Assembly: GCA_025934485.1 (NCBI GenBank)
Contig: JAICXX010000030.1
Location: forward strand, 1-45,979
Direction of reading: 5' to 3'
DNA from: Chitinophagaceae bacterium
GTDB taxonomy: Bacteria; Bacteroidota; Bacteroidia; Chitinophagales; Chitinophagaceae
DNA length: 45,979 bases
Made by a program: the position numbers and the translations under genes. Shown in pieces: positions 6,613 to 45,979 of this stretch. Under the pieces are notes generated by a model. It searched no databases and was not told the DNA's origin. It was given only the letters and a program-made list of their open reading frames with translations. Every line of letters begins with the position of its first letter. Position 1 is the first letter of the stretch.

Positions 6613-6662
6613 ATGATTGGGCTTTAGCCGGCGCCACATCGGCCTCCGGTTTCAGTTTACCG
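6613..6662. repeat. Possible degenerate copy of the dispersed three-stem repeat
   Basis: The plus strand here reads ATGATTGGGCTTTAGCCGGCG, close to TAATGATTGGCTTTCAGCCGGCG in the copy near 40846-40868. The rest of the copy is poorly conserved, with no clear first hairpin. It lies between aguB and aguA. This is the weakest assignment in the family. Confidence 0.4.
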
Positions 6663-6687
6663 CGGTGGCTCCGCGGCCCGCGGTGTA

Positions 6688-7563
6688 CTAGTCTTCGTCG
6701 ATATAGCGTTTCGTAATGGGTTGATAGGAATCGATCCGGCGGTCACGCAGAAAAGGCCAGTGTGTCCGGTACCGGTCCGTAGCCGCAGTGTCGATCTCCA
6801 CCACCGGCGTCTCCTCCTGCTCGTGCGACGCCTGGTAAACGACGCTCCCAAAAGGGTTCGACACAAACGACCCACCCCAGAATTTCATCGCCCCATCCTG
6901 TTCGAGGCCCACGCGGTTCACACTCACCACATACACGCCATTAGCCACGGCATGCCCACGCTGAATGGTTTGCCAGGCATTGTATTGCTCCGTATTGGTA
7001 GCCGCATCCTGGCTCGTTGCCCAGCCGATCGCCGTAGGATAGAAGAGGATCTCCGCACCCATGAGCGCCGTGATCCTCGCCGCCTCCGGATACCACTGGT
7101 CCCAGCAGATCAGCACACCGAGCGTGGCGAACTTTGTCTTGAAGACCTTATACCCCAGATCACCGGGGGTGAAATAGAATTTTTCGTAATAAGCAGGATC
7201 ATCCGGGATATGCATCTTCCGATACTTTCCAAGATAGCTGCCGTCGGCATCCAGTACAGCGGTGGTATTGTGATAAATCCCTTGTGCCCGCTTCTCAAAA
7301 AGCGAGGCGATGATCACCACACCCAGCTCCCCGGCCAGCTTACCAAGGGCATTGGTCGACTCCCCGGGTATCGGTTCGGCCAGCTTGAAGTTCTCGTAAT
7401 CCTCCACGTCACAAAAGTACAGGGACGTGAACAGCTCCTGGAGACAAACGATCTGCGCACCCTTGGCAGCCGCTTCCCTCACCTTTTTTATAGCCTTTTG
7501 GAGATTTCCCGCTTTGTCGGCCGTGCAGCTCATTTGCACGAGCCCTACTTTAACTTTAGTCAT
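6688..7563 (-). CDS. aguB: N-carbamoylputrescine amidase
   Basis: A 291-residue nitrilase-superfamily amidohydrolase that removes the carbamoyl group of N-carbamoylputrescine to give putrescine, CO2 and ammonia. The catalytic triad is visible as Glu43 (LQELF), Lys116 (KYRKMHIPD) and Cys153 (LICWDQWYPE). The length and the motif HIPDDPAYYEKFYFTPGD fit AguB rather than a general nitrilase. It is followed on the same strand by agmatine deiminase after about 75 bases, so these two adjacent steps of the pathway sit together. No arginine decarboxylase is seen in the window. Confidence 0.95.
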   Translation of the reverse strand: MTKVKVGLVQMSCTADKAGNLQKAIKKVREAAAKGAQIVCLQELFTSLYFCDVEDYENFKLAEPIPGESTNALGKLAGELGVVIIASLFEKRAQGIYHNTTAVLDADGSYLGKYRKMHIPDDPAYYEKFYFTPGDLGYKVFKTKFATLGVLICWDQWYPEAARITALMGAEILFYPTAIGWATSQDAATNTEQYNAWQTIQRGHAVANGVYVVSVNRVGLEQDGAMKFWGGSFVSNPFGSVVYQASHEQEETPVVEIDTAATDRYRTHWPFLRDRRIDSYQPITKRYIDED

Positions 7564-7570
7564 AGCGGCG

Positions 7571-7586
7571 CAAATTTACATTTTTT
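7571..7586 (-). promoter_or_regulatory. TAnnTTTG-type -7 box with A-tract, upstream of aguB
   Basis: The minus strand carries an A-tract and then TAAATTTG, 7 bases before the aguB ATG at 7563. The 16 bases are identical to those upstream of the Uma2 gene. The -33 element is not recognisable. Confidence 0.5.
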
Positions 7587-7615
7587 TTACGCCATTTGCG
7601 GGCCCATTTATGCCA

Positions 7616-8683
7616 CTATTTGCGCCCCATCTGCCGCAGAAAAGCGACGTGTGAAGCCACGGCATACCGCACCCGCGGATATTCGATATAGACCAGACCA
7701 TATTCGAGACAGGCCTGCCGGATGATCTTGCTGATCGCCGGATAATGAACGTGGGATATTTTGGGGAAAAGATGATGCTCGATCTGGAAATTGAGTCCGC
7801 CCACCAGCCAGGATACCACCGGGTTGCCCGTAGCGAAATTCGCGGTCGTTTTGATCTGATGTACCGCCCATTCGTCCTCCATCTTGCCCGTGGCCTCGTC
7901 GGCAACCGGGAAAGCCGTATGCTCCACCGTATGCGCCAGCTGAAAGACCATGCTCAGCACAAAACCGGCAACCGTCGTGAAGATGACAAAGCTGATCATC
8001 CAGTCGTACCAGCCCAGCCGGTAGATCGGCAATGCTACGAAGATAAAGGCATGAAAAGCCTTGAACCCCCAGAAAACGAAATGATCGCCCAAACTCATCT
8101 TTTTGAGTGGCATCGCCCCGATATGACGTTTGAAATATTTCTGATAATCCAGCACAAAGATCCAAAAGATATAAAGGACACTATACAAGACCCAGAAATA
8201 CAAATGCTGATAACGATGCATCCGGTATTTTTTCTGCGTCTCACTCATCCGCATCCAGGGCTGGATATCGATATCGTCGTCTATCCCGTCCACATTGGTG
8301 TAAGCATGGTGCACCACATTATGCTTCATATTCCACATAAAGCTGTTCCCGCCCAGGATGTTCAACGAAAAGGCCGCCAGGCTGTTGACCCATTTATATT
8401 TGGAAAAACTGCCATGTGCGCCGTCATGCATGACGTTGAAACCAATGGCCGCCACCAGTCCGCCCAAAAGCACGCTCTCCAGGATCGCCCAGAACGCATT
8501 GGGGGTGAAAAAGACCAGGTGGATATAGATGAACGCAAAGCTGACCATCAGGATCACCGCCTTGATGAACAGATTGTAGTTGCCGGTCTGAGAGGTCCCT
8601 ACCTCTTCAAAGTAGTTACCGATCCGCTTTTTAAGTTCGGAATGAAAACTTTGGGTGGCTTGTGTGAATTTAGGTAGAGACAT
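7616..8683 (-). CDS. Membrane fatty acid desaturase (acyl-CoA/acyl-lipid type)
   Basis: A 355-residue integral membrane di-iron desaturase (PF00487). All three histidine boxes are present: HDGAH at 86-90, HNVVHH at 121-126 and QIEHH at 300-304. Gln in place of the first His of box three is characteristic of front-end (delta-5/delta-6-like) desaturases, although bacterial members vary in position specificity and the fused cytochrome b5 domain is absent. Hydrophobic segments lie at about 40-60, 65-83, 163-180, 203-222 and 228-248. The enzyme probably introduces a double bond into membrane acyl chains for membrane fluidity. It is a separate unit from aguB, 52 bases away. Confidence 0.93.
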   Translation of the reverse strand: MSLPKFTQATQSFHSELKKRIGNYFEEVGTSQTGNYNLFIKAVILMVSFAFIYIHLVFFTPNAFWAILESVLLGGLVAAIGFNVMHDGAHGSFSKYKWVNSLAAFSLNILGGNSFMWNMKHNVVHHAYTNVDGIDDDIDIQPWMRMSETQKKYRMHRYQHLYFWVLYSVLYIFWIFVLDYQKYFKRHIGAMPLKKMSLGDHFVFWGFKAFHAFIFVALPIYRLGWYDWMISFVIFTTVAGFVLSMVFQLAHTVEHTAFPVADEATGKMEDEWAVHQIKTTANFATGNPVVSWLVGGLNFQIEHHLFPKISHVHYPAISKIIRQACLEYGLVYIEYPRVRYAVASHVAFLRQMGRK

Positions 8684-8703
8684 GATTGAATTTAAATGAG
8701 ATG

Positions 8704-8711
8704 CAAAAATA
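8704..8711 (-). promoter_or_regulatory. -7 box TATTTTTG upstream of desaturase gene
   Basis: A perfect TAnnTTTG match on the minus strand, 20 bases before the ATG at 8683. No clear TTTG is seen at the usual -33 spacing. Confidence 0.45.
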
Positions 8712-8783
8712 CCTTTTTAAGCGGGGATTTGGTGTTAAAGGACAGACAATTTAAACGTCTTGAGTACCTATATTGTTGTCGAC

Positions 8784-9536
8784 CTAGGTATCCATCTGTA
8801 TAAATGCCTCAAAATTCGTGATGCCGATCATCTTTTGCGTCGTATAACCCTCGGCATAGGGCACGCCGATCATCTTCCCCAGCATCCGGTGCCGGCCGAT
8901 GATGCTGTCCAGGAATTCGGGCGTCGAGATATAGGTTTGGGGCTCGGCTTCACCATATTCGCTGGAAAAGAACTGCGATGAATACGCCTGGATAGACTGC
9001 AGTTTGCCTTCAAACACCGGCGTGATGTCATACACGAAATCGGGCTGGATATACCTGTCCTGGATATAGTGAAAAACATATTTCGGCCGCCAGTGCTCCT
9101 GTGGCCGGCCCTCGTCATCGTGCGTGACGATCTTGCGCAGCCCGCTTAGAAAACACGATTCGCTGATCAGATGACCGGCGCGTCCATGATCGGGATGGCG
9201 GTCCTCCAACGCATTGGACAGCACGATCTCCGGCCGGTATTTACGGATGGCCCGGATCAGCAGCCGCTGGTGCATCTCGTCATTCCGGAAAAAGCCGTCG
9301 GCCATGCCAAGGTTCTCCCGCGCGTCCAGCCCCATGATCGCAGCCGCCCTGGCCGCCTCCTCCGCCCTAAGCTCCGGCGTTCCCCTGGTACCCAGCTCTC
9401 CCCGGGTCAGATCCACGACACCCGTCCGCTTTCCATTGCGTTTTTCCATCAGCAGCGTGCCCGCACACCCCAGCTCTACGTCGTCGGGATGCACGGCCAC
9501 AGCCAGTATATCCAGTTTAGGAGGATTCAAGTTCAT
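8784..9536 (-). CDS. bshB1: Bacillithiol biosynthesis deacetylase BshB1
   Basis: A 250-residue LmbE/PIG-L zinc deacetylase that removes the acetyl group from GlcNAc-malate, the second step of bacillithiol synthesis. Zinc-site motif HPDD occupies residues 16-19, and the downstream metal and active-site motif RHPDH is at 113-117. The strings VDLTRGELGTRGT and FRNDEMHQ are typical of BshB1 rather than of generic LmbE proteins. The bacillithiol-linked protein YtxJ is encoded at the far end of the window; bshA and bshC are not present. The gene is divergent from lpdA across a 243-base spacer that holds a dispersed repeat. Confidence 0.93.
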   Translation of the reverse strand: MNLNPPKLDILAVAVHPDDVELGCAGTLLMEKRNGKRTGVVDLTRGELGTRGTPELRAEEAARAAAIMGLDARENLGMADGFFRNDEMHQRLLIRAIRKYRPEIVLSNALEDRHPDHGRAGHLISESCFLSGLRKIVTHDDEGRPQEHWRPKYVFHYIQDRYIQPDFVYDITPVFEGKLQSIQAYSSQFFSSEYGEAEPQTYISTPEFLDSIIGRHRMLGKMIGVPYAEGYTTQKMIGITNFEAFIQMDT

Positions 9537-9541
9537 GGCCG

Positions 9542-9549
9542 CAAAAGTA
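9542..9549 (-). promoter_or_regulatory. -7 box TACTTTTG upstream of bshB1
   Basis: A perfect TAnnTTTG match on the minus strand ending 5 bases before the bshB1 ATG. If used, transcription would begin at or next to the start codon. Confidence 0.45.
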
Positions 9550-9565
9550 CGCTAATCCCATGGTA

Positions 9566-9597
9566 TTTGGCTATTTCCGCATTGTGGTTTACCTTCG
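9566..9597 (+). promoter_or_regulatory. Probable promoter of lpdA (TTTG-N20-TACCTTCG)
   Basis: TTTG at 9566-9569 is separated by 20 bases from TACCTTCG at 9590-9597, which matches TAnnTTTG except for one base. The expected transcript start is near 9604, about 175 bases before lpdA, so the leader would contain the whole repeat at 9612-9740. Confidence 0.5.
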
Positions 9598-9611
9598 CGG
9601 GTCGCTTGGAA

Positions 9612-9740
9612 TCTGCAGGAAAATGCGCTTCAAAAAAATAGCGCATTTCCTGCAAAATGGGCTACGCCCGCAACCTTCGGCCGAGCTGTGCTCGATCCTC
9701 GGTTGTGCCTGTCCTTCGGACGAGCCGCTTCCAGCGTCTC
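9612..9740 (+). repeat. Dispersed three-stem repeat, copy in lpdA leader
   Basis: The first hairpin pairs 9614-9628 with 9641-9654 (arm TGCAGGAAATGCGC with one extra A) around an A-rich loop. Then follow GGGC-TAC-GCCC at 9659-9669, CAACC (9671-9675) with GGTTG (9701-9705) enclosing CGAG/CTCG, and GTCC-TTC-GGAC at 9711-9721. The arms closely match those of the copy at 13607. The central part shares CGCAACCTTCG and CTCGGTTG with the copy at 37583. Confidence 0.75.
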
Positions 9741-9779
9741 CAAAATCTGATATTTTTTAATCGAAAAAAAGGATAATTC

Positions 9780-11183
9780 ATGGCATACGATGTAGTCGTT
9801 CTTGGTAGCGGTACCGGCGGATATCCCTCCGCGATCCGCGCTGCACAGCTGGGCTTTAAAGTAGCAATCATTGAAAAGGAGAATCTGGGTGGGGTTTGCC
9901 TGAACTGGGGATGTATCCCTACAAAGGCCCTTCTAAAGAGTGCTCAAGTAATGCAGGATATCCTCCATGCAAAAGACTACGGCATCGAAGCCAGTGGCAG
10001 CGTGGACTTCCCCGGCGTGATCAAACGCAGCCGCGGCGTAGCGGACAAGATGAGCAAAGGCGTTCAGTTCCTGATGCGCAAGAACAAGATCGACGTGATC
10101 CTGGGTTATGGAAAATTGAAGGCCAAAGGCCAGGTGGAAGTCACCGGCGCCGACGGCAAGACTGTGGTCGTCGAAGGGAAACATATCATCGTCGCGACCG
10201 GCGCCCGTAGCCGTGAGCTGCCCAATCTCAAGCAGGACGGCAAAAAGGTCATCGGCTACCGCGAAGCTATGACCCCGCAGACAAAACCGGGTAGCATCAT
10301 CATCGTAGGCAGCGGCGCCATCGGCGTGGAGTTCGCCTACTTCTATTTCAGCATGGGAGCAAAGGTGACCATCGTCGAATTCCTCCCCCGCATCGTTCCC
10401 GTGGAAGACGAAGAGATCTCCAAAGAGCTCGAAAAGAATTATAAGAAATACGGCATCGATATCCTCACCAGCAGCGAGGTCACCGGCGTAGATACCAGCG
10501 GCAACGGCGTCAAGGCCAAGGTCAAGACACCCACCGGCGAGATCACCCTCGAAGCCGACGTCCTGCTCAGCGCGGTAGGCATCAGCGCCAACCTCGAGAA
10601 CATCGGTCTCGAAACCCTCGGCATCAAGACGGACAAGGGCAAGATCGTCGTCGACAAATTTTACCAGACCAGCGTCCCCGGCATCTACGCCGTAGGCGAC
10701 TGCGTCCCCGGCCAGGCCCTCGCCCACGTCTCTACCAAGGAAGGCATCATCTGTGTGGAGAATATTGCCTATACGGAGAAGAAATATGCACACCAGCCAG
10801 AAGCGCTGGATTACAACAACATCCCCGGCTGTACCTATTGTACCCCCGAGATCGCATCGGTAGGCTTAACCGAAAAACAGGCCCGCGACGCCGGTTACGA
10901 GGTCAAAGTGGGTAAGTTCCCGCTGAGCGCCTCCGGCAAAGCCACCGGCGCCGGCCACACCGAAGGTTTCGTCAAGGTCATCTTCGACGCCAAATATGGC
11001 GAATGGCTCGGCACCCATATGATTGGCTACAACGTCACCGAGATCATAGCCGAAACCGTACTGGGCCGCAAGCTGGAGACGACCTACCACGAAGTCCTCG
11101 ATGCCGTCCACCCGCACCCGACCATCAGCGAAGCGGTAAAAGACGCCGTCGAAGCAGCCTATGGCGAAGCAATTCACCTATAA
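9780..11183 (+). CDS. lpdA: Dihydrolipoyl dehydrogenase (E3)
   Basis: The 467-residue flavoprotein reoxidises dihydrolipoamide in 2-oxoacid dehydrogenase complexes and the glycine cleavage system, passing electrons to NAD. Visible features: the FAD-binding loop GSGTGG at 9-14, the redox disulfide Cys40/Cys45 in GGVCLNWGCIPTK, the NAD-binding loop GSGAIG in the middle, the FAD motif YAVGDC, and the C-terminal catalytic pair His446/Glu451 in HPHPTISE. Full length, with ATG 9780. A strong terminator follows directly, so it is probably transcribed alone. An E2 component is encoded separately at 37823-39214. Confidence 0.97.
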   Translation: MAYDVVVLGSGTGGYPSAIRAAQLGFKVAIIEKENLGGVCLNWGCIPTKALLKSAQVMQDILHAKDYGIEASGSVDFPGVIKRSRGVADKMSKGVQFLMRKNKIDVILGYGKLKAKGQVEVTGADGKTVVVEGKHIIVATGARSRELPNLKQDGKKVIGYREAMTPQTKPGSIIIVGSGAIGVEFAYFYFSMGAKVTIVEFLPRIVPVEDEEISKELEKNYKKYGIDILTSSEVTGVDTSGNGVKAKVKTPTGEITLEADVLLSAVGISANLENIGLETLGIKTDKGKIVVDKFYQTSVPGIYAVGDCVPGQALAHVSTKEGIICVENIAYTEKKYAHQPEALDYNNIPGCTYCTPEIASVGLTEKQARDAGYEVKVGKFPLSASGKATGAGHTEGFVKVIFDAKYGEWLGTHMIGYNVTEIIAETVLGRKLETTYHEVLDAVHPHPTISEAVKDAVEAAYGEAIHL

Positions 11184-11203
11184 TTCACCGATCTCCCACA
11201 TAT

Positions 11204-11230
11204 AAAAGGGGGCCAACTGGCCCCTTTTTT
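11204..11230 (+). terminator. Intrinsic terminator after lpdA
   Basis: AAAAGGGGGCC and GGCCCCTTTTTT pair around the loop AACT and end in a run of six T, 20 bases after the lpdA stop. Confidence 0.9.
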
Positions 11231-11259
11231 GTTATATTGGCTCTTATATCTAAACACGC

Positions 11260-12693: not shown

Positions 12694-12708
12694 AATGAGA
12701 AATAAAAT

Positions 12709-12792
12709 TACCGGAACGGGTTTCCGTCTCAATATAACCCATTCCGGCAAAATCACTAATGTCTGCCTGGCGGCAATGGCCCTCCGGGCCAT
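12709..12792 (+). repeat. Dispersed three-stem repeat, copy between divergent genes
   Basis: First hairpin: 12709-12722 pairs with 12736-12749 (12 of 14 positions match exactly, the other two are G-T type differences). CTAATGTCTG follows at 12756-12765. Second hairpin: TGCC-TGGC-GGCA at 12764-12775. Third hairpin: ATGGCCC-TCC-GGGCCAT at 12776-12792, seven perfect pairs. Confidence 0.78.
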
Positions 12793-12861
12793 TTTGGACA
12801 ATTCCGCCACATTTCCGCTCCAATTCCGCCCGTCGCAAACAAGGTCCCGCAACTTGCCCAC

Positions 12862-13635
12862 ATGAAGAATATCATCATCACGCTATGCGCGCTAGCCGCC
12901 ATGACCGCCGCCCTCACCGCGGGCGCCCAAAACCTCCAGCTCCACTACGATCTCCGCCACACGATATCCCCGGCAACCAACCCCAAAAATTTCCCCACCC
13001 TCTATTTCGAGTTCTGGAAGATGCGCGACTCCGGCCGACACCTCATCAAACCCGGCGGCTTTCTGCTCAAGACCGAAGCCGACCTCCAGGGCCTAAACAA
13101 CAACATCGGCAAATTCTTCCTACAGGTGAGCCAGTCCTTCCGTGCCTGGACACCCAGGATCTTTCTGCAGCTCCAATACAGCGGGGGCGGCGGCATCACG
13201 GAGCCCAAACAATACAGCTACTATATTACCAACACCTATCAGGGCGGTGCCGAAGTCCCCTTCCGCTGGAAACAAGCCTTCCTAACTGCCGTACTCGACT
13301 ACAAATACGTCTCCTATCCTAAACCAACCAGCGACCCCATCTTCACCCTCTATTGGTACCGCGGCTTCTTCCACCACAAATTAGAATTCGCCGGCGACTT
13401 CTCCGTCTGGACCGGGAACCGCAACCACGGCGACGAGCCCACAACCGGCGAAAAGGGCAAACAAGGCTTCTTTTTTGCCGAACCCCAGGTCTGGTATAAC
13501 GCCGGAAAAGGCCTCAGCATCGGCTCCAAGCTCAACTGCTACTATCACGTCAATATCCCCGCGGATAGCTGGCAGGCCTACCCGACCCTGGCGGCCCGGA
13601 TAAATGTGCAAGAGATGCGCTTGCCGAAAAATTAG
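12862..13635 (+). CDS. DUF5020-family outer-membrane protein
   Basis: The 257-residue protein has a signal peptide (about 1-22, cleavage after AGA) and alternating aromatic strands of a small beta barrel. It matches the Bacteroidota DUF5020 family, related to nucleoside-channel (Tsx-like) barrels, as shown by the start QNLQLHYDLRH and by GFFFAEPQVWYN late in the chain. The likely last strand is SWQAYPTLAARI. The following NVQEMRLPKN and the TAG stop are encoded by the repeat that begins at 13607, so the usual C-terminal aromatic residue of an outer-membrane barrel is missing. Whether this harms assembly is not known from the sequence. Confidence 0.82.
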   Translation: MKNIIITLCALAAMTAALTAGAQNLQLHYDLRHTISPATNPKNFPTLYFEFWKMRDSGRHLIKPGGFLLKTEADLQGLNNNIGKFFLQVSQSFRAWTPRIFLQLQYSGGGGITEPKQYSYYITNTYQGGAEVPFRWKQAFLTAVLDYKYVSYPKPTSDPIFTLYWYRGFFHHKLEFAGDFSVWTGNRNHGDEPTTGEKGKQGFFFAEPQVWYNAGKGLSIGSKLNCYYHVNIPADSWQAYPTLAARINVQEMRLPKN

Positions 13636-13692
13636 CGCATCTCCTGCAAAGCGCTAATGATTGCCCTTCGGGCGAGACTCTTCCAGGGTCTC
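13607..13692 (+). repeat. Dispersed three-stem repeat, copy at the DUF5020 3' end
   Basis: First hairpin: 13607-13620 with 13635-13648 (13 of 14 positions), loop containing GAAAAATTA. GCGCTAATGATTG follows at 13651-13663. Second hairpin: GCCC-TTC-GGGC at 13663-13673. Third: GAGAC (13674-13678) with GTCTC (13688-13692). An alternative pairing exists between ATTAGCGC (13631-13638) and GCGCTAAT (13651-13658). The stop codon of the upstream gene lies inside the repeat. Confidence 0.82.
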
Positions 13693-34804: not shown

Positions 34805-34845
34805 GATCGGCCCACGGCAAAAACTGGATCGGCCCGCGGCCGATC
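34805..34845. repeat. Direct repeats with GATCGGCC palindrome
   Basis: GATCGGCCCACGGC (34805-34818) and GATCGGCCCGCGGC (34827-34840) agree at 13 of 14 positions with an 8-base spacer. The second overlaps the perfect palindrome GATCGGCC-CGC-GGCCGATC (34827-34845). It lies about 50 bases before the predicted DoxX promoter and could be an operator or a remnant of an intergenic repeat. Confidence 0.5.
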
Positions 34846-34893
34846 GCCCGAAGAGCAATCATGAAACGTTTTTTTGGCCCCGAGGCATTTTTG

Positions 34894-34925
34894 TTTGCAG
34901 CGAAGGGGGCAAAAAACTATCTTCG
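34894..34925 (+). promoter_or_regulatory. Probable promoter of the DoxX operon (TTTG-N20-TATCTTCG)
   Basis: TTTG at 34894-34897, then 20 bases, then TATCTTCG at 34918-34925. The spacing and both boxes fit the Bacteroidota consensus with one change in the -7 box. Start of transcription is expected near 34932, 13 bases before ATG 34945. Confidence 0.6.
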
Positions 34926-36337: not shown

Positions 36338-37633
36338 ATGGAAAAGCTTATAGCCAGTATTGTCACTATCGGAGATGAACTATTGATCGGACAGGTGGTA
36401 GACACTAACAGCGCCTGGATGGCGCAGGAACTGAACAAGAACGGCATCTGGGTCGGTCATCGGGTAGCCGTAGGGGATGTACGCGAAGACATCCGGCAAG
36501 CCCTCGATCAGGAAGCCCAAAGGGCCTCGATCATCCTCATCACCGGCGGCCTGGGCCCCACCGCCGACGATATCACTAAGCCGGTTCTCACCGAGTATTT
36601 CGGGGGCAAAATGGTCGTCGACGAAGGCGCCCTGGCCAATGTCAAATGGATCTTCGAACGCGTCCTCAAACGACCGATGATCGAACGCAACCTGGCACAG
36701 GCCGAAGTCCCCGATACCTGCACCGTCATCCAGAACAAACGCGGCACCGCCCCCGGCATGTGGTTCGAAAAGGACGGCCGCATCTTCGTCTCGATGCCCG
36801 GCGTCCCGCATGAGATGAAAGGCATGATCACGGACTATGTGATCCCCGAGCTTCGCCGGCGTTTCCAGCTCCCCTTCATCGCCCACCGTACCCTCCTTAC
36901 AGCCGGCATCGGCGAATCCTTCCTCGCGGAACACATCAAGGACTTTGAACAGGCCCTGCCCGCTTCCATCAAGCTCGCCTACCTGCCGAATTATGGCATG
37001 GTCCGCCTGCGGTTGACGATCCACGGCGAAGACCCTGCCGCGCTGGAGACCGAAGTAGATAGCCAATTCGCCACCCTCAAAGGGCTGGTTGGCGAATGGA
37101 TGGTAACGGACCGGGATATAACCATCCAGGAGGCCATCGGCCGCCTCCTTCTGGCCAAAGGCAAGACGCTCTCCACCGCCGAAAGCTGTACCGGCGGCTA
37201 TATCGCCCATCTCATCACCTCGATCCCCGGCAGCAGTCATTATTATAAAGGTAGTGTCGTCAGCTACGACAACGACGTCAAGACAAATACCCTCCACGTC
37301 AGCCCCGAAACCCTGCAAAGCGAGGGCGCCGTCAGCGAAGCCACCGTCCGGCAAATGGTCAAGGGCGCGCTGACCCTGCTGGATACCGATTTCACCATCG
37401 CCACCTCCGGGATCATGGGTCCCGATGGCGGCAGCGAGGGAAAACCGGTGGGCACCGTTTGGGTCGCAGTTGGAAACCGTCAAAATATTCTGACCCAGAA
37501 ATTCTCGTTCCGGTTCGACAGAGCACGGAATATTGAATTAACGGCAACAAATGCACTGAATCTGTTGAGAAAATTCATCGGCGACGCTCCGGGGCCGCCA
37601 GGCAAAAATAGCCCCACCGCGTCCAAGAGCTAA
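36338..37633 (+). CDS. cinA: CinA-family protein (NMN/nicotinamide nucleotide amidohydrolase)
   Basis: A 431-residue protein with an N-terminal MoCF-biosynthesis-like domain (about 1-170, TGGLGPTADDIT at 69-80) and a C-terminal PncC-type domain (from about 255) with the catalytic serine in STAESCTGG. The enzyme recycles pyridine nucleotides by deamidating NMN, and the N-terminal domain of some members acts on ADP-ribose. The last 16 or so residues (DAPGPPGKNSPTASKS) do not look like the family's end and are encoded by the repeat at 37583; the conserved part ends near NLLRKFIG. Confidence 0.93.
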   Translation: MEKLIASIVTIGDELLIGQVVDTNSAWMAQELNKNGIWVGHRVAVGDVREDIRQALDQEAQRASIILITGGLGPTADDITKPVLTEYFGGKMVVDEGALANVKWIFERVLKRPMIERNLAQAEVPDTCTVIQNKRGTAPGMWFEKDGRIFVSMPGVPHEMKGMITDYVIPELRRRFQLPFIAHRTLLTAGIGESFLAEHIKDFEQALPASIKLAYLPNYGMVRLRLTIHGEDPAALETEVDSQFATLKGLVGEWMVTDRDITIQEAIGRLLLAKGKTLSTAESCTGGYIAHLITSIPGSSHYYKGSVVSYDNDVKTNTLHVSPETLQSEGAVSEATVRQMVKGALTLLDTDFTIATSGIMGPDGGSEGKPVGTVWVAVGNRQNILTQKFSFRFDRARNIELTATNALNLLRKFIGDAPGPPGKNSPTASKS

Positions 37634-37738
37634 TGATTAGACCATCGTCGGGGCTTCGTTCCTTGCCCCCTCCTCGGTCGCAACCTTCGCGGGGCTCGGT
37701 TGCAGCCGAAGGGGCTGTGCCCCTTCTTTGGCTACTAA
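37583..37738 (+). repeat. Dispersed three-stem repeat, copy at the cinA 3' end
   Basis: First hairpin: GACGC (37583) with GCGTC (37619-37623) and GGGGC (37591-37595) with GCCCC (37611-37615), around a loop with CAAAAATA. GCTAATGATT follows at 37629-37638. Further stems include CAACC/GGTTG (in the stretch 37681-37702) and AAGGGGC-TGT-GCCCCTT (37709-37725). The right half resembles the lpdA-leader copy and may act as a weak terminator. Confidence 0.68.
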
Positions 37739-37822: not shown

Positions 37823-39214
<1,392 letters not shown>

Positions 39215-39217
39215 CCG

Positions 39218-39249: not shown

Positions 39250-39271
39250 ATTAACCCATTAATTGAGTTCC

Positions 39272-39994: not shown

Positions 39995-40008
39995 CTTCCG
40001 GCGCGCCC

Positions 40009-40062
40009 GCCACCCGCCGGACCGTCGGTGCCCCTCATTCTTGGGCGCCTGTCCGGCTTCCA
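40009..40062 (+). repeat. Partial dispersed repeat downstream of CBM9 gene
   Basis: This region aligns without gaps to 40886-40937, about 42 of 52 positions identical, sharing CCGCCGG, CCGTC, GCCCCT, CTTGGGCGC and CCGGCTTCC. Both copies have the same orientation. They flank the CBM9-like gene on each side. The last codons of that gene overlap this copy. Confidence 0.6.
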
Positions 40063-40829
40063 AACTCCACATACCCCCATTTCTCGGGGATATGCATATT
40101 GATCGCCCCCTGCGGCGACCACACCCAGTTGTGCTCCGGTTTGCGTTTCCCATTCGCATCTACCTGCGGCGCATACCTGCCATCATGCACATCGAGATCC
40201 CACTCCACGCGCGAAAAATTGATCCGCCAAATATCGCCGGCCTTCACTGACTTGTCGCCCCAAAACAAGACATCCTTCAACGGGATCGCCATCTCTACCG
40301 ACCACCCCTTGTCGACATCACCCGGATGATTAACCGTACCGTTCACATTCACCGCACTGCGCAGCCCCTGTGCATCCCAGCTCAGCAGCGGCTTACCGCC
40401 AAGCCGGTAGGGCTTGAAGAGAAAAAGATCCATCTCCGTCCCCAGCGTATTGATCTCGAACTCGAAATAGTTCAGCCCATCCCCATCCGGATCGATGAAA
40501 GCCTCGAAATCATTGTCATGATAGATCACCGCATCGTGCTGGGTCAGCGTACTCCACATATTGGGCTCCTCCAACTCCGCATAGAGATATAGATAGGTGC
40601 TGTCCCAAAGCATCTTCATCCGCGTATGCAGGGCCGGTTTGGGTAAGCTGTCGCCCAGGATGTCTACAAAGTCCTCGGTCCACGATGCCTGCTGCCAGGC
40701 CTCTTCACGGGCCACCCCGTCGATCGAAAGCGGCTTGGCGGCATAATGACAAACATAGCGGCGCTGCGCCTGTGCCTGTGCCTGTGCCTGTACGGCCAGG
40801 AAAATACTCAGCAAAAAGAAGTATCGCAT
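40035..40829 (-). CDS. Exported carbohydrate-binding (CBM9-like) protein
   Basis: A 264-residue exported protein of the CBM9-like family (PF06452), a beta-sandwich that binds sugars in secreted enzymes and stand-alone proteins. The signal peptide (about 1-22) ends in a run of Gln-Ala pairs. Family strings are LSIDGVAREEAWQQASWTEDFVDI, YLYAELEEPNMW, NDFEAFIDPDGDG, YFEFEINTLGTEMDLFLFKPY and WRINFSRVEWD. No catalytic domain follows, so it is a binding protein or a part of a larger saccharide-handling system. The gene is flanked by two related repeats. Confidence 0.9.
   Translation of the reverse strand: MRYFFLLSIFLAVQAQAQAQAQRRYVCHYAAKPLSIDGVAREEAWQQASWTEDFVDILGDSLPKPALHTRMKMLWDSTYLYLYAELEEPNMWSTLTQHDAVIYHDNDFEAFIDPDGDGLNYFEFEINTLGTEMDLFLFKPYRLGGKPLLSWDAQGLRSAVNVNGTVNHPGDVDKGWSVEMAIPLKDVLFWGDKSVKAGDIWRINFSRVEWDLDVHDGRYAPQVDANGKRKPEHNWVWSPQGAINMHIPEKWGYVEFGSRTGAQE
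40768..40791. repeat. Four copies of a 6-bp tandem repeat in a signal peptide
   Basis: GCCTGT is repeated four times (minus strand ACAGGC), encoding the Gln-Ala run at the end of the CBM9 protein's signal peptide. Changes in copy number would keep the frame and only change the length around the cleavage site. Confidence 0.85.
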
Positions 40830-40842
40830 CAGGAAAGCTTAT

Positions 40843-40937
40843 GGCTAATGATTGGCTTTCAGCCGGCGACCCTCCGGGTCCGGCCCTCCCGCCGGGCCGT
40901 CCGCGCCCCTCTGCCTTGGGCGCGCGCCCGGCTTCCG
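40843..40937 (+). repeat. Dispersed repeat, copy at the 3' end of the DMT transporter
   Basis: GGCTAATGATT at 40843-40853, then GGCT-TTC-AGCC at 40854-40864, GACCC-TCC-GGGTC at 40868-40880, CGGCCC/GGGCCG at 40881-40899. The first long hairpin is missing. It lies across the stop codon (40845-40847) and the last 30 codons of the minus-strand transporter gene, so it encodes that protein's tail. Confidence 0.7.
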
Positions 40938-41795: not shown

Positions 41796-41798
41796 CTA

Positions 41799-42590
41799 TT
41801 ATTTAGACTCCGCGATAGCCTCCTTGGAGAACGGCCCCACAGCCACAGCATCATTTTTTACGCGGTTGCGATAGTTCTTGAACAGCGAATGCCAACGCAG
41901 ATTCAGGACACCCAGGATACCTTCCTTGACGATCCCTTTGTTCATCTTGGAGACGCCAAACTTCCGGTCCTCGAAGATAATGGGAACTTCCTTTATCTTA
42001 AAGCCCAGCTTCCAGGCCGCGAATTTCATTTCGATCTGGAAGGCATAGCCTACGAACTTGATCTGATCGAGATTGATCGTCTCCAACACCTCTTTCCGGT
42101 AGCAAACGAAACCGGCGGTGGGGTCCTGCACCGGCATCCACGTGATCAGCCGGGTATAAAACGAGCCTCCACGCGAAAGCAAAATGCGGTTCTTCGGCCA
42201 GTTCACATTTCCGCCCCCTTTGACATACCGCGAACCCACTGCCAGATCCGCACCCTGGCGCTTACACGCCTCATATAACCGGTCCAGGTCCTTGGGGTTA
42301 TGCGAGAAATCCGCATCCATCTCGAAGATGAACTGATAGTTGTTCCTTACGGCCCACTTAAACCCATGGATATACGCCGTCCCCAACCCCAGCTTACCCT
42401 GGCGCTCCTCGAGAAAAAGCTGACCGGGATACCGTTGCTGCACGCCTCTGACGATCGTTGCCGTGCCATCGGGCGAGCTATCATCGATCACTAACACGTG
42501 AAAACCCTGTCCCAACTGGAAAATAGCCTCCAGGATATTGGTGATATTTTCCTTCTCGTTGTAAGTAGGTATGATGACGATCTTTTCCAA
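41799..42590 (-). CDS. Family 2 glycosyltransferase, polyprenyl-phosphate mannosyltransferase-like
   Basis: A 263-residue GT-A glycosyltransferase with the profile of dolichyl/polyprenol-phosphate mannose synthases: VIIPTYNEKENI, VIDDSSPDGT near 34-43, metal-binding DAD (Asp92 to Asp94 in FEMDADFSH), GSRYVKGGG and FQIEMKFAAWKLGFKIKEVPI. It lacks the membrane domain of longer relatives. It probably makes a polyprenyl-phosphate sugar donor for envelope glycosylation. The gene ends 3 bases before the DMT transporter start on the same strand. Confidence 0.93.
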   Translation of the reverse strand: MEKIVIIPTYNEKENITNILEAIFQLGQGFHVLVIDDSSPDGTATIVRGVQQRYPGQLFLEERQGKLGLGTAYIHGFKWAVRNNYQFIFEMDADFSHNPKDLDRLYEACKRQGADLAVGSRYVKGGGNVNWPKNRILLSRGGSFYTRLITWMPVQDPTAGFVCYRKEVLETINLDQIKFVGYAFQIEMKFAAWKLGFKIKEVPIIFEDRKFGVSKMNKGIVKEGILGVLNLRWHSLFKNYRNRVKNDAVAVGPFSKEAIAESK

Positions 42591-42608
42591 CTCGTACGGT
42601 GATTGTTT

Positions 42609-42693
42609 CCCGGGAATACGCCGTCGGAAAATTAGCGCATTCCCGGCAATCCGCTAATGTCTGTCCTGTCGGACAAGCCTTCTCCGTCGGCTT
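42609..42693 (+). repeat. Dispersed three-stem repeat, copy upstream of the GT2 gene
   Basis: First hairpin: CCGGGAATACGC (42610-42621) with GCGCATTCCCGG (42635-42646). CGCTAATGTCTG at 42652-42663. Second: GTCC-TGTC-GGAC at 42663-42674. Third: AAGCC (42675-42679) with GGCTT (42689-42693). The alternative stem ATTAGCG (42631-42637) with CGCTAAT (42652-42658) is also present. It lies in the 149 bases between two minus-strand genes. Confidence 0.8.
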
Positions 42694-42739
42694 ATTAATT
42701 TAACTACGAAGTTACGATTTTTCAGTACCCCTCAGCCGC

Positions 42740-43507
42740 TCACCCCTTTTTTAACATTGTCCTGTTGAAGATTTCCGTTAGTTTCTGCTTCGTATGCAGA
42801 GGGAAATCACCTTTCATCATCCAGTCGTAATACTGCGGCTCCGCCTTCAGGATCTCGGCTACGCTCCGGCCCTTATGTTTGCCGAAGTTAAAGACTTCCA
42901 CCCCGTTCTCCAAGACAAAACGCCGGGCAAAATCCACGACCTGTTCTTCACCGATACATTTAAGAATGGTATCGATATTTGTTCCCAGCTGCGGATACTT
43001 CACCACCTGCGCTACCAGCACTTCCCAGGTAGCCGTCGCATCGACCTCCGCCCCATGCGCCCCTTCCAGCTCTTTGCTGCAATAGAAGCGATAAGCGGCG
43101 CTCAGCGTCCTTTGCTCCATCATATGAAAGATCTTTTGAACATCTAATAGCTTCCGTCCCTTGCTGTCGAATTCCATCCCGATCCGCAGGAATTCTTCGA
43201 CTAACATAGGAATGTCAAACCGGTTCGAATTGTATCCGGCGAGGTCGCAATGATCCAAAAATTGCTTTAACTCGTTGGCTACCTGTCGAAAGTTCGGCGC
43301 ATCCTTGACCATTTCGTTGGTAATGCCGTGGATATCGACAGATCCCTGCGAGATAGGAATTTCCGGGTTGATGAGCTTCCGCTTCACTAATTTTTTGCCA
43401 TCCGGCATAATTTTCACGATGGCGATCTCTACGATTCGGTCAGTGCCCAGATTGACCCCCGTCGTTTCCAGGTCAATGATCGCTAGCGGGCGAGTGAGTT
43501 GTAGCAT
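42740..43507 (-). CDS. DnaQ-like 3'-5' exonuclease (DEDDh)
   Basis: A 255-residue exonuclease of the DnaQ superfamily: ExoI motif IDLETTG (Asp12, Glu14), ExoII NSNRFDIPML, ExoIII His and Asp in GAHGAEVDA. The C-terminal region (about 210-255, FNFGKHKGRSVAEILK) is the extra domain seen in Bacteroidota proteins of this kind. It could proofread or process DNA or RNA ends; the exact role is unknown. Its first 35 bases overlap the end of the upstream mpl gene in a different frame. Confidence 0.92.
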   Translation of the reverse strand: MLQLTRPLAIIDLETTGVNLGTDRIVEIAIVKIMPDGKKLVKRKLINPEIPISQGSVDIHGITNEMVKDAPNFRQVANELKQFLDHCDLAGYNSNRFDIPMLVEEFLRIGMEFDSKGRKLLDVQKIFHMMEQRTLSAAYRFYCSKELEGAHGAEVDATATWEVLVAQVVKYPQLGTNIDTILKCIGEEQVVDFARRFVLENGVEVFNFGKHKGRSVAEILKAEPQYYDWMMKGDFPLHTKQKLTEIFNRTMLKKG

Positions 43508-44855
43508 GCAGTGTTATTAATAAATCTCCTATAACAAGCCCATCGAAATTCCCTGAGCTCATCAAAAGCAAATTAACATTTTTGTAAGATTGTTCCATCA
43601 GCCATTTTTCCAAATCTTTTCTATCCTGGATAACAGCCATCCCCGCTTTGCCAAAACCCGCCTTTACCTTTTCTTCCGGCAGCGGCGGCAACCGTTTCAA
43701 TTCCAGCGCATGCCGGGAATAAAAAACCGCCGCCTCATCGGCCGGATCGAGCGCCCCGTGATATTGGCTCAGAAACTGCTCATTTAGACTGCTATACGTA
43801 TGCAGCTCCAGTACCGCGATCAGTTTCCGGCCCGGGAACTGCATTTTTACAGCCTGGATCGTAGCCTTTACCTTGCTCGGCGCATGGGCAAAATCCCGGT
43901 ACACATTCACCGTGTCGCCCCTGCCTACCAGCTCCAGCCGTTTGGCAGCTCCCGAAAACCCGGCGATGCCCGCCAGGAACTCTTGCGTGTCCATACCTAA
44001 CTCCCTGGCTACCAGGAAGGCAGCATGCAGGTTTAGCAGATTGTGCTCCCCAAAAACTTTGAGTCTGCCCGTCTGGCTATCCAGTTTAACAACTGTTATG
44101 CCGTTTTCGATGGTATACTCCGGGACGCTATAGCCGATCTTCCGAACGAGCGTGGGATGCTCTTCCACCAGCTTCTTCAACACAGGATCGGTCTCATTAT
44201 AAATGAGCACGCCCCCCGGCTCGATCTTATCGATAAAAATGCGGAATTGATCAAGGTAGTTCTCGAAGGTAGGAAACACATTGATATGATCCCAGGCGAT
44301 CCCTGTGATCACGGCGATTTGAGGAAACAGAAAATGGAATTTAGGCCGTTTCTCCAACGCACTGGCCGGATACTCATCTCCCTCGCAAACGATCAACGGC
44401 GCCCCCGTGATGTTCACGGATTGGGGGAAACCATCCAGCCTCGCCCCTACCAGGTAATCGAAGGCCTTGCCGGAATGCTGCAACACCTTCATGATCATCG
44501 CTGTCGTGGTGGTCTTCCCATGACTGCCACCGACCACCACCCGGACCTTGTCCCGGCTTTCCCGGTAGATATATTCGGGGAAAGAATAGATCGGCAATGA
44601 CAGCTCCCTGGCCCGCTGAAGCTCCGGGTTATCCGCCTTCGCATGCATCCCAAGGATCACCGCATCCAATCCGGGATGGATCAGGGCCTGCTGCCACCCG
44701 ATAACGGCCGGTAAGAGGCCCTCCTTTTCCAAATTCGTCCGCGCCGGCTCAAAGATCTCATCGTCGCTGCCGGTGACCACATAGCCTTTTCGCTTCAAAG
44801 CAATAGCAAGCTGATGCATTACGCTGCCGCCAATTGCGATAAAATGTACATTCAT
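43473..44855 (-). CDS. mpl: UDP-N-acetylmuramate:murein-peptide ligase
   Basis: A 460-residue Mur-ligase-family enzyme that attaches recovered murein peptide (L-Ala-gamma-D-Glu-meso-DAP) to UDP-MurNAc for peptidoglycan recycling. The N-terminus FIAIGGSVMHQLAIALKRKGY is specific for Mpl; the ATP loop VGGSHGKTTTT is at 108-117, followed by EGDEYPAS and ITGIAWDHINVFPTFE. The C-terminal Mur domain has FAHAPSKVKATI. Length is normal. The 3' end overlaps the exonuclease start by 35 bases, which suggests translational coupling. Confidence 0.93.
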   Translation of the reverse strand: MNVHFIAIGGSVMHQLAIALKRKGYVVTGSDDEIFEPARTNLEKEGLLPAVIGWQQALIHPGLDAVILGMHAKADNPELQRARELSLPIYSFPEYIYRESRDKVRVVVGGSHGKTTTTAMIMKVLQHSGKAFDYLVGARLDGFPQSVNITGAPLIVCEGDEYPASALEKRPKFHFLFPQIAVITGIAWDHINVFPTFENYLDQFRIFIDKIEPGGVLIYNETDPVLKKLVEEHPTLVRKIGYSVPEYTIENGITVVKLDSQTGRLKVFGEHNLLNLHAAFLVARELGMDTQEFLAGIAGFSGAAKRLELVGRGDTVNVYRDFAHAPSKVKATIQAVKMQFPGRKLIAVLELHTYSSLNEQFLSQYHGALDPADEAAVFYSRHALELKRLPPLPEEKVKAGFGKAGMAVIQDRKDLEKWLMEQSYKNVNLLLMSSGNFDGLVIGDLLITLHATTHSPASDH

Positions 44856-44905
44856 AGTTCAAAATCAATTAGTTACTCAAAACTCCAACTTTCAAGGCCA
44901 AGGGG

Positions 44906-44937
44906 CTTGCGAATGTCGAATTTTTATATTTATTTTG
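44906..44937 (+). promoter_or_regulatory. Possible promoter upstream of the small lipoprotein gene
   Basis: CTTG at 44906-44909 and TATTTTG at 44931-44937, 21 bases apart. If used, the transcript starts near 44944, with a leader of about 190 bases before ATG 45133. The boxes are imperfect. Confidence 0.35.
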
Positions 44938-45132
44938 TATCACCGAGTTGATATTCTTTCTCTATCCTTCGAATTGCCTTCCCAATTTCTTATCGTTTTT
45001 TCGCTCAAACCACCTGGAACAGTTTTTGCCCTAGTCGAAATAACTGTCCGCATCCCTTCCTAAGAATTACCTGGTATCCATTTCCTCATTTGTTTCCAGG
45101 CAATTTATCGTTTCAATCTTAAATACCACAAA

Positions 45133-45267
45133 ATGAGAAAGACAATTTTAATTTTAGCTATCGTTGCTGCTGTGGCCTCCGCTTTTGCATCTTGCGCCTC
45201 TTCCCGCGGCGGTTGCGCTATGAGCCAGGGCTTTGTAGGATACGGTCACTCCGTTAGCGGTCGCTAA
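45133..45267 (+). CDS. Small lipoprotein, 44 residues
   Basis: A short gene. The product starts MRKTILILAIVAAVASAF with lipobox ASC; after the lipid-anchored Cys21 come only 23 residues (ASSRGGCAMSQGFVGYGH and four or five more), containing a second cysteine and an FVGYG segment. Such tiny Bacteroidota lipoproteins are common and of unknown role. Evidence for a real gene: a clean lipoprotein signal, an AT-rich upstream region with a possible promoter, and an intrinsic terminator after the stop. Confidence 0.8.
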   Translation: MRKTILILAIVAAVASAFASCASSRGGCAMSQGFVGYGHSVSGR

Positions 45268-45334
45268 GCATCGGATTATCGCTCGCCGCGAAGCTGGCTG
45301 CGGGCATCCCCACCCTTCCCAAAAACTTTTTATC

Positions 45335-45363
45335 AGGTTATCGGTCTTCGATAACCTTTTTTT
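45335..45363 (+). terminator. Intrinsic terminator after the small lipoprotein gene
   Basis: AGGTTATCG (45335-45343) pairs perfectly with CGATAACCT (45349-45357) around a 5-base loop and runs into seven T. Confidence 0.92.
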
Positions 45364-45442
45364 ATTATCATCCCCACCTCACAGGCGCCGGATGAACTAT
45401 TTCTGCCGGAAAATGTTATTTGCAAGATAACGTTTATATACT

Positions 45443-45775
45443 ATGAATTGGATCCCGCTACATTCTGAGTCTCAGCTCAATGAGATCAAAGCCAAATCGG
45501 CCGACCGTCCCCAGCTCATCTTTAAACACAGTACCCGCTGCTCGACCAGCGCCGTGGTCAAAGGGCGGCTGGAACGAGCCAAAAGACCGGAATCCATCGA
45601 CTTCTATTATCTCGATCTGCTGAGCTTCCGCCCCATCTCAAACCGGGTAGCCGATCTCTTTCAGATCGACCACGAATCCCCCCAGGTCCTCCTGATCCGC
45701 AACGGCGAGTGCGTCTATGACGAGAGCCACATGGGCATCACCATGGACGAGATAGTCGACGCGTCGGCGGCGTAA
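45443..45775 (+). CDS. ytxJ: Bacillithiol-system thioredoxin-like protein YtxJ
   Basis: A 110-residue monothiol thioredoxin-fold protein (DUF2847). The active-site cysteine is Cys33 in FKHSTRCSTSAVV, with the cis-proline region in SPQVLLIRNGE. YtxJ is thought to act as a bacilliredoxin that removes bacillithiol from proteins; the pathway gene bshB1 lies at 8784-9536. The final codons and the TAA stop (IVDASAA) fall in the first unit of the 90-bp tandem repeat. Confidence 0.92.
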   Translation: MNWIPLHSESQLNEIKAKSADRPQLIFKHSTRCSTSAVVKGRLERAKRPESIDFYYLDLLSFRPISNRVADLFQIDHESPQVLLIRNGECVYDESHMGITMDEIVDASAA

Positions 45776-45979
45776 GCAAAAATACCGCCTCGCGTCGACA
45801 AGGTTAATGTCTGGGCCTTCGGCCAGCCGGCCCGTGGCCGGCTCTGCGACGCGTCGGCGGCGTAAGCAAAAATACCGCCTTGCGTCGACATGGTTAATGT
45901 CTGGGCCTTCGGCCAGCCGGCCCGTGGCCGGCTCTGCGACGCGTCGGCGGCGTAAGCAAAAATACCGCCTTGCGTCGAC
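45755..45979 (+). repeat. 90-bp tandem array of the dispersed three-stem repeat, running off the window end
   Basis: Units start at 45761, 45851 and 45941 with a period of 90; two full units and part of a third are present, differing at two positions (CTCGCG/CTTGCG and CAAGG/CATGG). In the first unit GTCGACGCG (45755-45763) pairs with CGCGTCGAC (45791-45799), and GGCGG with CCGCC. Then TTAATGTCTG, GGCC-TTC-GGCC (45814-45824) and AGCCGGCC-CGT-GGCCGGCT (45825-45843). Confidence 0.85.

What the first reader, a model, noticed from the sequence alone, without database searches (positions are those of the whole stretch)
6613..45979. A family of dispersed intergenic repeats with a three-hairpin plan
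Eight or nine copies share an order of parts: long imperfect hairpin with an A-rich loop, GCTAATG(T/A)(C/T)TG, a short hairpin with a 3-4 base loop, and a third hairpin. Copies lie near 9612, 12709, 13607, 37583, 42609 and 45755, with partial or degenerate copies at 6613, 40009 and 40843. All are between genes or at gene ends, and all read in the same direction on the plus strand. I do not recognise a named element. No transposase is in the window, so a non-autonomous REP/MITE-like element moved by a remote enzyme, or a regulatory RNA element, are both possible.
Basis: partly seen in the sequence, partly recalled or inferred. Interest (0 to 1): 0.8.

Follow-up and report, generated by a model that had tools for sequence, protein, structure and literature searches.

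The report
Three-hairpin DNA repeats in Puia bacteria
A soil bacterium's genome holds well over a hundred copies of a roughly 90-base DNA element built of three hairpins; the copies have drifted far apart in sequence yet nearly all still fold, and they behave like old mobile DNA whose moving enzyme is not yet proven.

Summary
The repeat is real and is a family. Seven of nine listed places are copies or reduced copies; 6613 and 40009 are not supported, and one copy (34827-34917) lies on the minus strand. A covariance model finds at least 138 copies at E <= 1e-3 in this genome, in 15 of 33 Puia genomes (one weakly) and in both held genomes of another genus; Rfam has no match. Copies average 53% identity, yet 90% of stem cells pair, with 845 double-sided changes. 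G-T is not in excess over A-C, unlike in tRNA stems, so the constraint looks like DNA, not plus-strand RNA. Eight sites are empty in relatives. I read an old non-autonomous, REP-like mobile element moved in trans as a DNA hairpin. The best enzyme candidate, a RAYT beside uvrD, occurs in all 15 Puia carriers, but its catalytic tyrosine is replaced (histidine in 12), a copy lies near it in only 1 of 11 loci, and the second genus has no significant RAYT match. New variant of a known kind.

The parts
13604..13692 (+). Full copy, best in the window. Long hairpin arms 13607-13620 and 13635-13648 with loop between; conserved motif GCTAATGATTG 13653-13663; short hairpin arms 13663-13666 and 13670-13673; third hairpin arms 13674-13681 and 13685-13692
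   Evidence: 85.7 bits, E 4.6e-21 (also a seed of the model); fold. The frame of a DUF5020 gene runs into its 5' arm and stops at the end of its loop
42605..42693 (+). Full copy; another Puia genome (G023, L088) also holds a copy at this orthologous site
   Evidence: 74.2 bits, E 4.9e-18 (also a seed)
45753..45844 (+). First unit of a tandem array; its 5' arm overlaps the last codons of the BrxC-like gene 45443-45775
   Evidence: 55.4 bits, E 4.1e-13 (also a seed); repeat period 90
45845..45933 (+). Second unit of the array
   Evidence: 40.5 bits, E 3.3e-09
45934..45979 (+). Third unit, cut by the contig end
   Evidence: 14.1 bits, E 0.027; 98% identical to unit 1 over 43 bases
12705..12793 (+). 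Full copy between divergent genes
   Evidence: 49.5 bits, E 1.5e-11 (also a seed)
9611..9740 (+). Long hairpin present; the middle is replaced by other hairpins, and a short plus third hairpin follow at 9706-9739
   Evidence: 33.5 bits, E 2.2e-07 and 15.6 bits, E 0.011
37579..37669 (+). Divergent copy with an expanded middle; the cinA-like frame 36338-37633 runs into it
   Evidence: 23.9 bits, E 7.4e-05
40828..40884 (+). Reduced copy without the long hairpin
   Evidence: 21.9 bits, E 2.5e-04
34827..34917 (-).
   Evidence: 24 bits, E 7.2e-05; sequence

Best explanation
A family of short non-autonomous mobile DNA elements, about 90 bases, recognised as folded single-stranded DNA and moved in trans. 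Shown: high copy number, empty orthologous sites in relatives, A/T-rich bases at the 5' junction, no systematic target duplication, mostly intergenic placement without sense preference, stems kept almost wholly by Watson-Crick pairs. Inferred: that the hairpins are the recognition signal of an HUH-type single-strand DNA enzyme, and that in Puia this enzyme was the RAYT pair next to uvrD. The family is old in this genome: outside the array loci no two of 103 full-length copies compared are 90% alike, so what is seen is mostly standing copies whose hairpins have been kept, by selection or by templated correction of the two arms.
For: Carriers: 11 of 39 genomes including own, 14 of 33 Puia genomes at E <= 1e-4 plus G011 weakly, 4 of 294 family genomes in 2 of 101 genera (stricter filters), 2 of 2 genomes of genus g80. 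Eight sites filled in one genome and empty in relatives: L148, L152, L156, L011, L085, L299, L292, L077. Bases -4 to -1 almost without C in 44 copies. No systematic target duplication. Stem statistics. G-T/A-C counts in the long stem 25/63 in own copies against 11/0 in nine tRNAs. RAYT2 scores 346-393 bits in 11 of 11 carriers and at most 145.3 bits in the 16 Puia non-carriers searched; homologous proteins, also beside uvrD, in the other four carriers. In Puia dinghuensis (G009, 100% complete) the only Y1 or RAYT matches at the thresholds used are this pair. The RAYT2 model (mean pLDDT 86.6) best matches 4er8, a RAYT bound to a REP hairpin (E 5.6e-6, TM 0.50/0.58).
Against: G102 and G182 hold 32 and 10 copies and no significant RAYT or Y1 match (in one search G102 none, G182 one at E 0.475). 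G102's copies are more alike than own or G182 copies (median nearest neighbour 89%, 10 copies), so something spread them there. The Puia carriers with the marker are one clade on the uvrD tree, so the RAYT correlation is one event. A copy lies in only 1 of 11 RAYT loci with flanks of 1.5 kb or less, and in 3 of 11 of the wider loci. RAYT2 has H, E or S where the catalytic Tyr should be, and own RAYT1 lacks the HUH pair by eye. No orientation bias with GC skew (131 of 238) that lagging-strand insertion might give. One insertion (L148) has an apparent 18-base duplication. For six of the eight sites gain and loss cannot be told apart. In other alignments G-T and A-C in the long stem are 17/23 (A6) and 10/33 (A4). 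No movement was observed.
Confidence: 0.6

Rival explanations
1. The element is mobile but was moved by an enzyme unrelated to RAYT, shared by Puia carriers and genus g80 and now perhaps lost. The RAYT pair co-occurs only by clade.
For: G102 and G182 have copies and no significant RAYT or Y1 match; co-occurrence in Puia is one phylogenetic event; RAYT2 lacks the catalytic Tyr.
Against: No gene was seen to recur between close pairs of copies (19 intervals, 17 with an ORF, one of them a flank, read by eye). No such enzyme was identified, but I did not search for other transposase families.
Confidence: 0.35
2. A structured RNA element (mRNA element, attenuator or small RNA) that happens to be repeated.
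For: Three conserved hairpins with strong covariation. A possible alternative pairing of the loop's TTAG with CTAA: one of three tested positions exceeds shuffles (59 against 46.9, 0 of 2000), the other two do not (79 against 78.7, 77 against 78.3); 94 of 186 elements could be scored. Some reduced copies sit next to terminator-like hairpins (by eye).
Against: G-T is not in excess on the plus strand (64 G-T against 108 A-C over the three helices of own copies), unlike tRNAs (11 against 0); between co-directional genes antisense placement is at least as common as sense (38 against 22), and 34 of 106 copies lie between divergent genes; no Rfam match. The A-C excess in the long stem would be wobble on the minus strand, so a minus-strand RNA is less firmly excluded.
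Confidence: 0.12
3. The stems are kept not by selection but by a mutational process (quasi-palindrome correction: one arm copied from the other during replication), so covariation says little about function. The name of the process is recalled, from no call.
For: Pairing almost only Watson-Crick. In L148 the 5' arm lies, by eye, in host coding sequence of a sigma-factor gene and the 3' arm is its 13-base reverse complement.
Against: The third hairpin also covaries; arm sequences fall into recurrent types, and in L292 the arm is not in the empty site, so arms usually travel with the element. Whether correction occurs was not tested directly.
Confidence: 0.25

Closest known systems
RAYT / TnpA_REP subclass 2.6 of Bacteroidetes with 'atypical secondary structures' (PMC6006769, passages seen)
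   Same: Bacteroidota; many dispersed intergenic hairpin repeats; a RAYT of similar motif pattern (WQ, IH.NP) in Puia carriers.
   Different: Those genes are described as flanked by their structures; here 10 of 11 RAYT loci hold no copy within 1.5 kb. Published motifs are NH[LIV]H and YIH[QN]NP; here SHLH in 10 of 15 carriers and HIHENP in 12 of 15. Genus g80 has the repeat without a significant RAYT match.
GTAG and CGTC REPs (PMC3733652, passages seen)
   Same: High copy, intergenic, stems with alternative complementary bases, tandem clusters.
   Different: Those are 20-40 bp palindromes tagged by GTAG or CGTC; this is about 90 bp with three hairpins and a CTAATGTCTG foot.
IS200/IS605-derived MITEs (PATEs; recalled, no call)
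   Same: Hairpin-bearing, no target duplication, A/T-rich 5' junction.
   Different: No autonomous relative with these ends was found: none of 9 loci of the 158-aa-type TnpA holds a copy. Other IS elements were not searched.
Pneumococcal BOX elements (PMC3049150, search listing and start of abstract only; modular build recalled)
   Same: Dispersed small repeats, modular build, no enzyme in the element.
   Different: Unrelated host; parts here are three hairpins in fixed order. Sequences were not compared.
MOBV1 relaxase MobM (PMC5863519, passages seen)
   Same: HUH enzyme that uses a histidine in place of tyrosine; its oriT is predicted to form three mutually exclusive hairpins: a precedent for RAYT2.
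   Different: A plasmid relaxase, not a RAYT; a catalytic role of the histidine in RAYT2 is untested.

Membership tests
REP sequences of a REPtron (RAYT/TnpA_REP) | GT[AG]G tetranucleotide at the 5' foot of the hairpin | tested here: not met
   Conserved foot is CTAATG(T/A)(C/T)TG
REP sequences of a REPtron (RAYT/TnpA_REP) | Single palindrome of 20-40 bp | tested here: not met
   About 90 bases, three hairpins; reduced copies exist
REP sequences of a REPtron (RAYT/TnpA_REP) | Many dispersed intergenic copies | tested here: met
REP sequences of a REPtron (RAYT/TnpA_REP) | RAYT gene flanked by copies within about 1 kb | tested here: not met
   A copy in 1 of 11 RAYT loci with flanks of 1.5 kb or less, on one side only (some loci are short). 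Contrast: in G040 another repeat lies on both sides of a Tyr RAYT
REP sequences of a REPtron (RAYT/TnpA_REP) | A RAYT with its catalytic tyrosine in the genome | tested here: not met
   RAYT2 has no Tyr at the canonical place in any of the 15 Puia carriers (12 H, 1 E, 2 S); no significant RAYT match in G102 and G182. Whether His can act is not testable here
IS200/IS605-derived MITE | Ends shared with an autonomous IS200/IS605 | tested here: not met
   No copy in 9 loci of the 158-aa-type TnpA; other IS elements not searched
IS200/IS605-derived MITE | Insertion 3' of a short target, no duplication | tested here: inconclusive
   A/T-rich -4 to -1, no systematic duplication, but no fixed tetranucleotide
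DDE-type MITE | Target-site duplication | tested here: not met
   4-base duplications in 2 of 73 against 1.04 expected; the script set a few starts inside the arm. L085 may have AAAT; L148 has an apparent 18-base duplication
DDE-type MITE | Terminal inverted repeats joining the two ends | tested here: not met
   Inverted repeats are local to each hairpin
Known RNA family (Rfam 15) | Score at or above gathering cut-off | tested here: not met
   0 matches in the window
Integron attC site | R' and R'' boxes and an integron integrase | not tested
   No search for an integrase or for the boxes was made

The most novel reading that the evidence does not exclude
A composite three-hairpin DNA element moved by a RAYT pair that has traded its catalytic tyrosine for histidine, in the manner of the MobM relaxase, perhaps as a heterodimer in which RAYT2 keeps the HUH histidines; and whose stems are renewed by copying one arm from the other or even from the target, as the host-derived arm in L148 hints, so that sequences drift while folding is kept. 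At one threshold (E <= 1e-4) the 12 carriers with His have 10 to 122 copies, and the three with Glu or Ser have 0, 5 and 6 (G011, G335, G019; few independent events, and G019 is 65% complete). Against it: G040 also has His and shows no copy.
Probability: 0.12. Interest if true: 0.85.

Novelty: new variant of a known kind. Interest (0 to 1): 0.5.

Why it matters
It adds a well-defined, experimentally reachable repeat family, present in an isolated species (Puia dinghuensis), to a phylum for which the paper searches made here listed little on REP-like elements. It separates two things usually taken together: a REP-like repeat and its RAYT. Genus g80 keeps the repeat without a significant RAYT match, and Puia has a RAYT without the catalytic tyrosine. 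If the histidine RAYT is active, it would extend histidine-based DNA cleavage to transposase relatives. The nearly Watson-Crick-only covariation across more than a hundred old copies gives a clean system to ask whether DNA hairpins are kept by selection or by arm-to-arm copying.

Tried and rejected
Transcript element: tested by orientation, wobble counts and Rfam; not supported. Target duplication: none systematic. 158-aa TnpA near aroB as mobiliser: not among the matches of G009, G011 and G019, which carry copies, while similar-sized Y1 proteins are present in G015 and G164, which do not. A gene caught between copies: none seen to recur (19 intervals, by eye; one of these is a flank and two had no ORF). 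Search for the same family in G040, whose uvrD-linked RAYT also has His: no match better than E 0.64 in 400 kb sampled; it has another repeat instead. The first structure job, on A2, gave a poor model (mean pLDDT 44) and was not used. Viral contigs: 0 exact pattern matches. Guide-type insertion (3' arm pairing with the target) was considered for L148 and set aside, because L292 and the recurrent type-A arms suggest that arms usually travel with the element.

Rows dropped before counts: 92 of 186 elements did not match the pattern needed; only 73 copies could be given both ends, and a few starts were set inside the arm (for example L083, L054, L077); matches under 60 bases, flanks under 1200 bases and array neighbours were left out; matches under about 60 bases and repeats of the same sequence were left out; array loci, the window among them, were left out of the 103. 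The 261 records are redundant, since loci overlap. In one search, 7 of 15 alignments (L069, L240, L319, L290, L261, L089, L304) were too diverged to read and one (L237/L353) shows a reduced copy, not an empty site; L148 and L152 were read. One search covered 100 loci only; L003, L004, L005, L021 and several overlapping loci were left out. Counts of copies differ between calls because the number of candidates scored is capped (150, 112, 132 or 14) and thresholds differ. One search (first tRNA control) gave no usable rows; one search replaced it with a simpler count.
Full report
What was checked. I read every place listed in the finding. The plan of parts is there in the clear copies: a long hairpin of about 14 pairs whose loop ends in an A-rich stretch and TTA, then CTAATG(T/A)(C/T)TG, a short four-pair hairpin with a loop of three or four, and a third hairpin of seven or eight pairs. 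From 16 copies, four of them from the window, I made alignment A1 and model R1. In the window, filters off, R1 gives 17 matches at E <= 1, nine of them at E <= 2.5e-4. These include all listed places except 6613 and 40009, and add a minus-strand copy at 34827-34917. The array at 45753 runs off the contig end.

The genome. The window lies in G000, 6.75 Mb in 381 contigs. The motif SCTAATGWYTG has 92 sites against 13 for the reversed control. I fetched many of them and aligned 150 matches (A5). Over 149 distinct rows 90.1% of stem cells form a standard pair against 62.6% shuffled, 845 cells are changed on both sides against 238, and the covariation score is 0.543 against 0.138. That alignment is fitted to the model, so I also give the unfitted 16-row figure: 0.377 against 0.179.

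DNA or RNA. In the long stem of A5 there are 1696 Watson-Crick cells, 25 G-T and 63 A-C of 1902; in the short stem 519, 12 and 6 of 550; in the third 795, 27 and 39 of 959. In the other alignments of the same call the long stem has 10 and 33 (A4), 17 and 23 (A6) or 5 and 11 (A1); the third stem of A1, which is poorly aligned there, has more G-T than A-C (16 and 7). In acceptor and T stems of nine tRNAs from the same loci it is 96 Watson-Crick, 11 G-T and 0 A-C. A plus-strand RNA should tolerate G-U far better than A-C; this does not show. The A-C excess in the long stem would be wobble on the minus strand, so that reading is weaker but not excluded. Between co-directional genes copies lie antisense 38 times and sense 22 times; 34 lie between divergent and 12 between convergent gene pairs (mechanical ORFs). 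Rfam has no match.

Age. Among 103 own full-length copies outside the array loci the mean pairwise identity is 53%, the median nearest neighbour 74%, and none has a partner at 90% or more. The copies are old, yet they fold. That is the most striking feature.

Mobility. Flanks of 261 copy records (redundant, since loci overlap) were compared with all held loci. Together with the uvrD locus eight sites are readable as filled in one genome and empty in another: L148, L152, L156, L011, L085, L299, L292, L077 (for the last six). L148 is missing in the nine relatives whose site I printed and L152 in six, so those two are gains; for the others gain and loss cannot be told apart from the comparisons made. 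Seven of fifteen alignments could not be read. The four bases before ATGTGC are A/T-rich with almost no C in 44 copies. A systematic target duplication is absent. Some sites are occupied in two species (window 42605 with G023; L033 with G004), with different stems.

An anomaly. In L148 the 5' arm lies in the start of a sigma-factor gene, whose codons can be matched by eye to relatives, and the 3' arm is the 13-base reverse complement of it. An 18-base piece of the same host sequence is repeated on the other side. At window 45753 the 5' arm is likewise the end of a BrxC gene frame, though the last residues lie beyond the Pfam domain. In L292 the arm is not in the empty site. So arms usually travel with the element, and L148 may show copying of one arm from the target. 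I cannot decide this.

Who carries it. The 68 stretches of a motif scan come from Puia, from MAGs labelled Chitinophagaceae, Chitinophagales, Sphingobacteriales or Bacteroidetes, and from one MAG labelled Tenericutes, whose locus gives no R1 match at E <= 0.001. Carriers are 11 of 39 genomes including own, 14 of 33 Puia genomes at E <= 1e-4 with G011 as a weak fifteenth, 4 of 294 family genomes in 2 of 101 genera (stricter filters), and 2 of 2 genomes of genus g80 with 32 and 10 copies. On a uvrD tree the 14 Puia carriers with this marker form one clade, whose sister G164 has neither copies nor the RAYT pair; g80 is separate.

The candidate enzyme. Behind uvrD the 11 carriers examined have two adjacent RAYT-like genes; the four further carriers have the second one beside uvrD. 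RAYT2 scores 346-393 bits in carriers and at most 145.3 in the 16 Puia non-carriers searched with A2; G332 and G333 were searched with Pfam only. NCBIfam places both own proteins nearest to REP-associated tyrosine transposase, below its cut-off (53.6 and 60.6 bits against 80). RAYT2's model best matches 4er8 (TM 0.50/0.58). The HUH histidines are kept, but the tyrosine is H in 12, E in G011 and S in G019 and G335. A histidine nucleophile is known in MobM (PMC5863519, passages). Against the link: G102 and G182 have copies and no significant RAYT or Y1 match (one search gives one G182 match at E 0.475); no copy lies within 1.5 kb of the pair in 10 of 11 loci, and the wider loci hold matches in 3 of 11 (L148, L152, L156); and G040, which also has His, shows no copy.

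Comparison. [quoted passage not shown] By the tests tabled here the element is not a canonical REP, not a DDE-type MITE and not a known RNA family. It works most like a REP or a hairpin-borne MITE. Searches listed no paper that, from titles, starts of abstracts and the passages read, describes this repeat; only part of most lists was shown, and most subscription papers are not in that library.

Verdict. A real, old, non-autonomous DNA-hairpin repeat family, new in sequence and build as far as these searches show, of a known general kind. That it is dispersed mobile DNA I hold likely (about 0.85); that it moved as a DNA hairpin by an HUH-type enzyme, 0.6; that the RAYT pair is that enzyme, about 0.35.

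Noticed in passing
G040, loci L363-L382; L382 about 10267-10980: A genome of another Chitinophagaceae genus has a different abundant repeat (palindrome AGTCACTCGCCGGGAGGCGAGCGACTG, often in inverted pairs with further hairpins between; 32 pattern hits in 400 kb sampled). Copies lie on both sides of a RAYT with an intact tyrosine: it looks like a classical REPtron.
   Followed up: partly
L240, L237:1269, L264, L266, L267, L279:964, L280, L283, L289; window 37579 and 9611: In some copies the short hairpin is opened by a larger insert with a recurring pattern such as GAACTTCGGCCCGC...GCGGCCCTCGTTC (by eye). A second structural module of the family.
   Followed up: no
L236:657, L279:1656, L287:1277, L019:1471, L290:3330: Reduced copies without the long hairpin lie a few bases 3' of terminator-like or other hairpins (by eye, not counted). 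Insertion preference or loss of the long hairpin; at L237/L353 a relative has a reduced copy at the site of a full one.
   Followed up: partly
window 45753-45979; L025, L271, L294, L038 with L015, L291, L293: Tandem arrays of nearly identical units of about 87-93 bases, several at contig ends, so assembly may break there and true copy number may be higher.
   Followed up: partly
L031 (G000:C348) and relatives: A 158-aa IS200-like TnpA beside what look by eye like aroB and a DAHP-synthase gene, with F where the catalytic Tyr would be expected (by eye); similar single genes in several Puia genomes. Looks domesticated.
   Followed up: no
L148:9731-10360: Own RAYT1, the upstream partner, lacks the HUH histidines by eye, yet the gene is conserved (64-86% identity) beside RAYT2 in the 10 other carriers aligned.
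   Followed up: partly
L077, L310, L338: A strongly conserved stretch (TCTGATTTTAACTGGCATCTTAAATAGAAATTTAAATGCGTGAATAA) next to a copy; the flank is 93% identical over 224 bases between two Puia genomes, while other flanks in the same comparison are mostly 70-82%.
   Followed up: no
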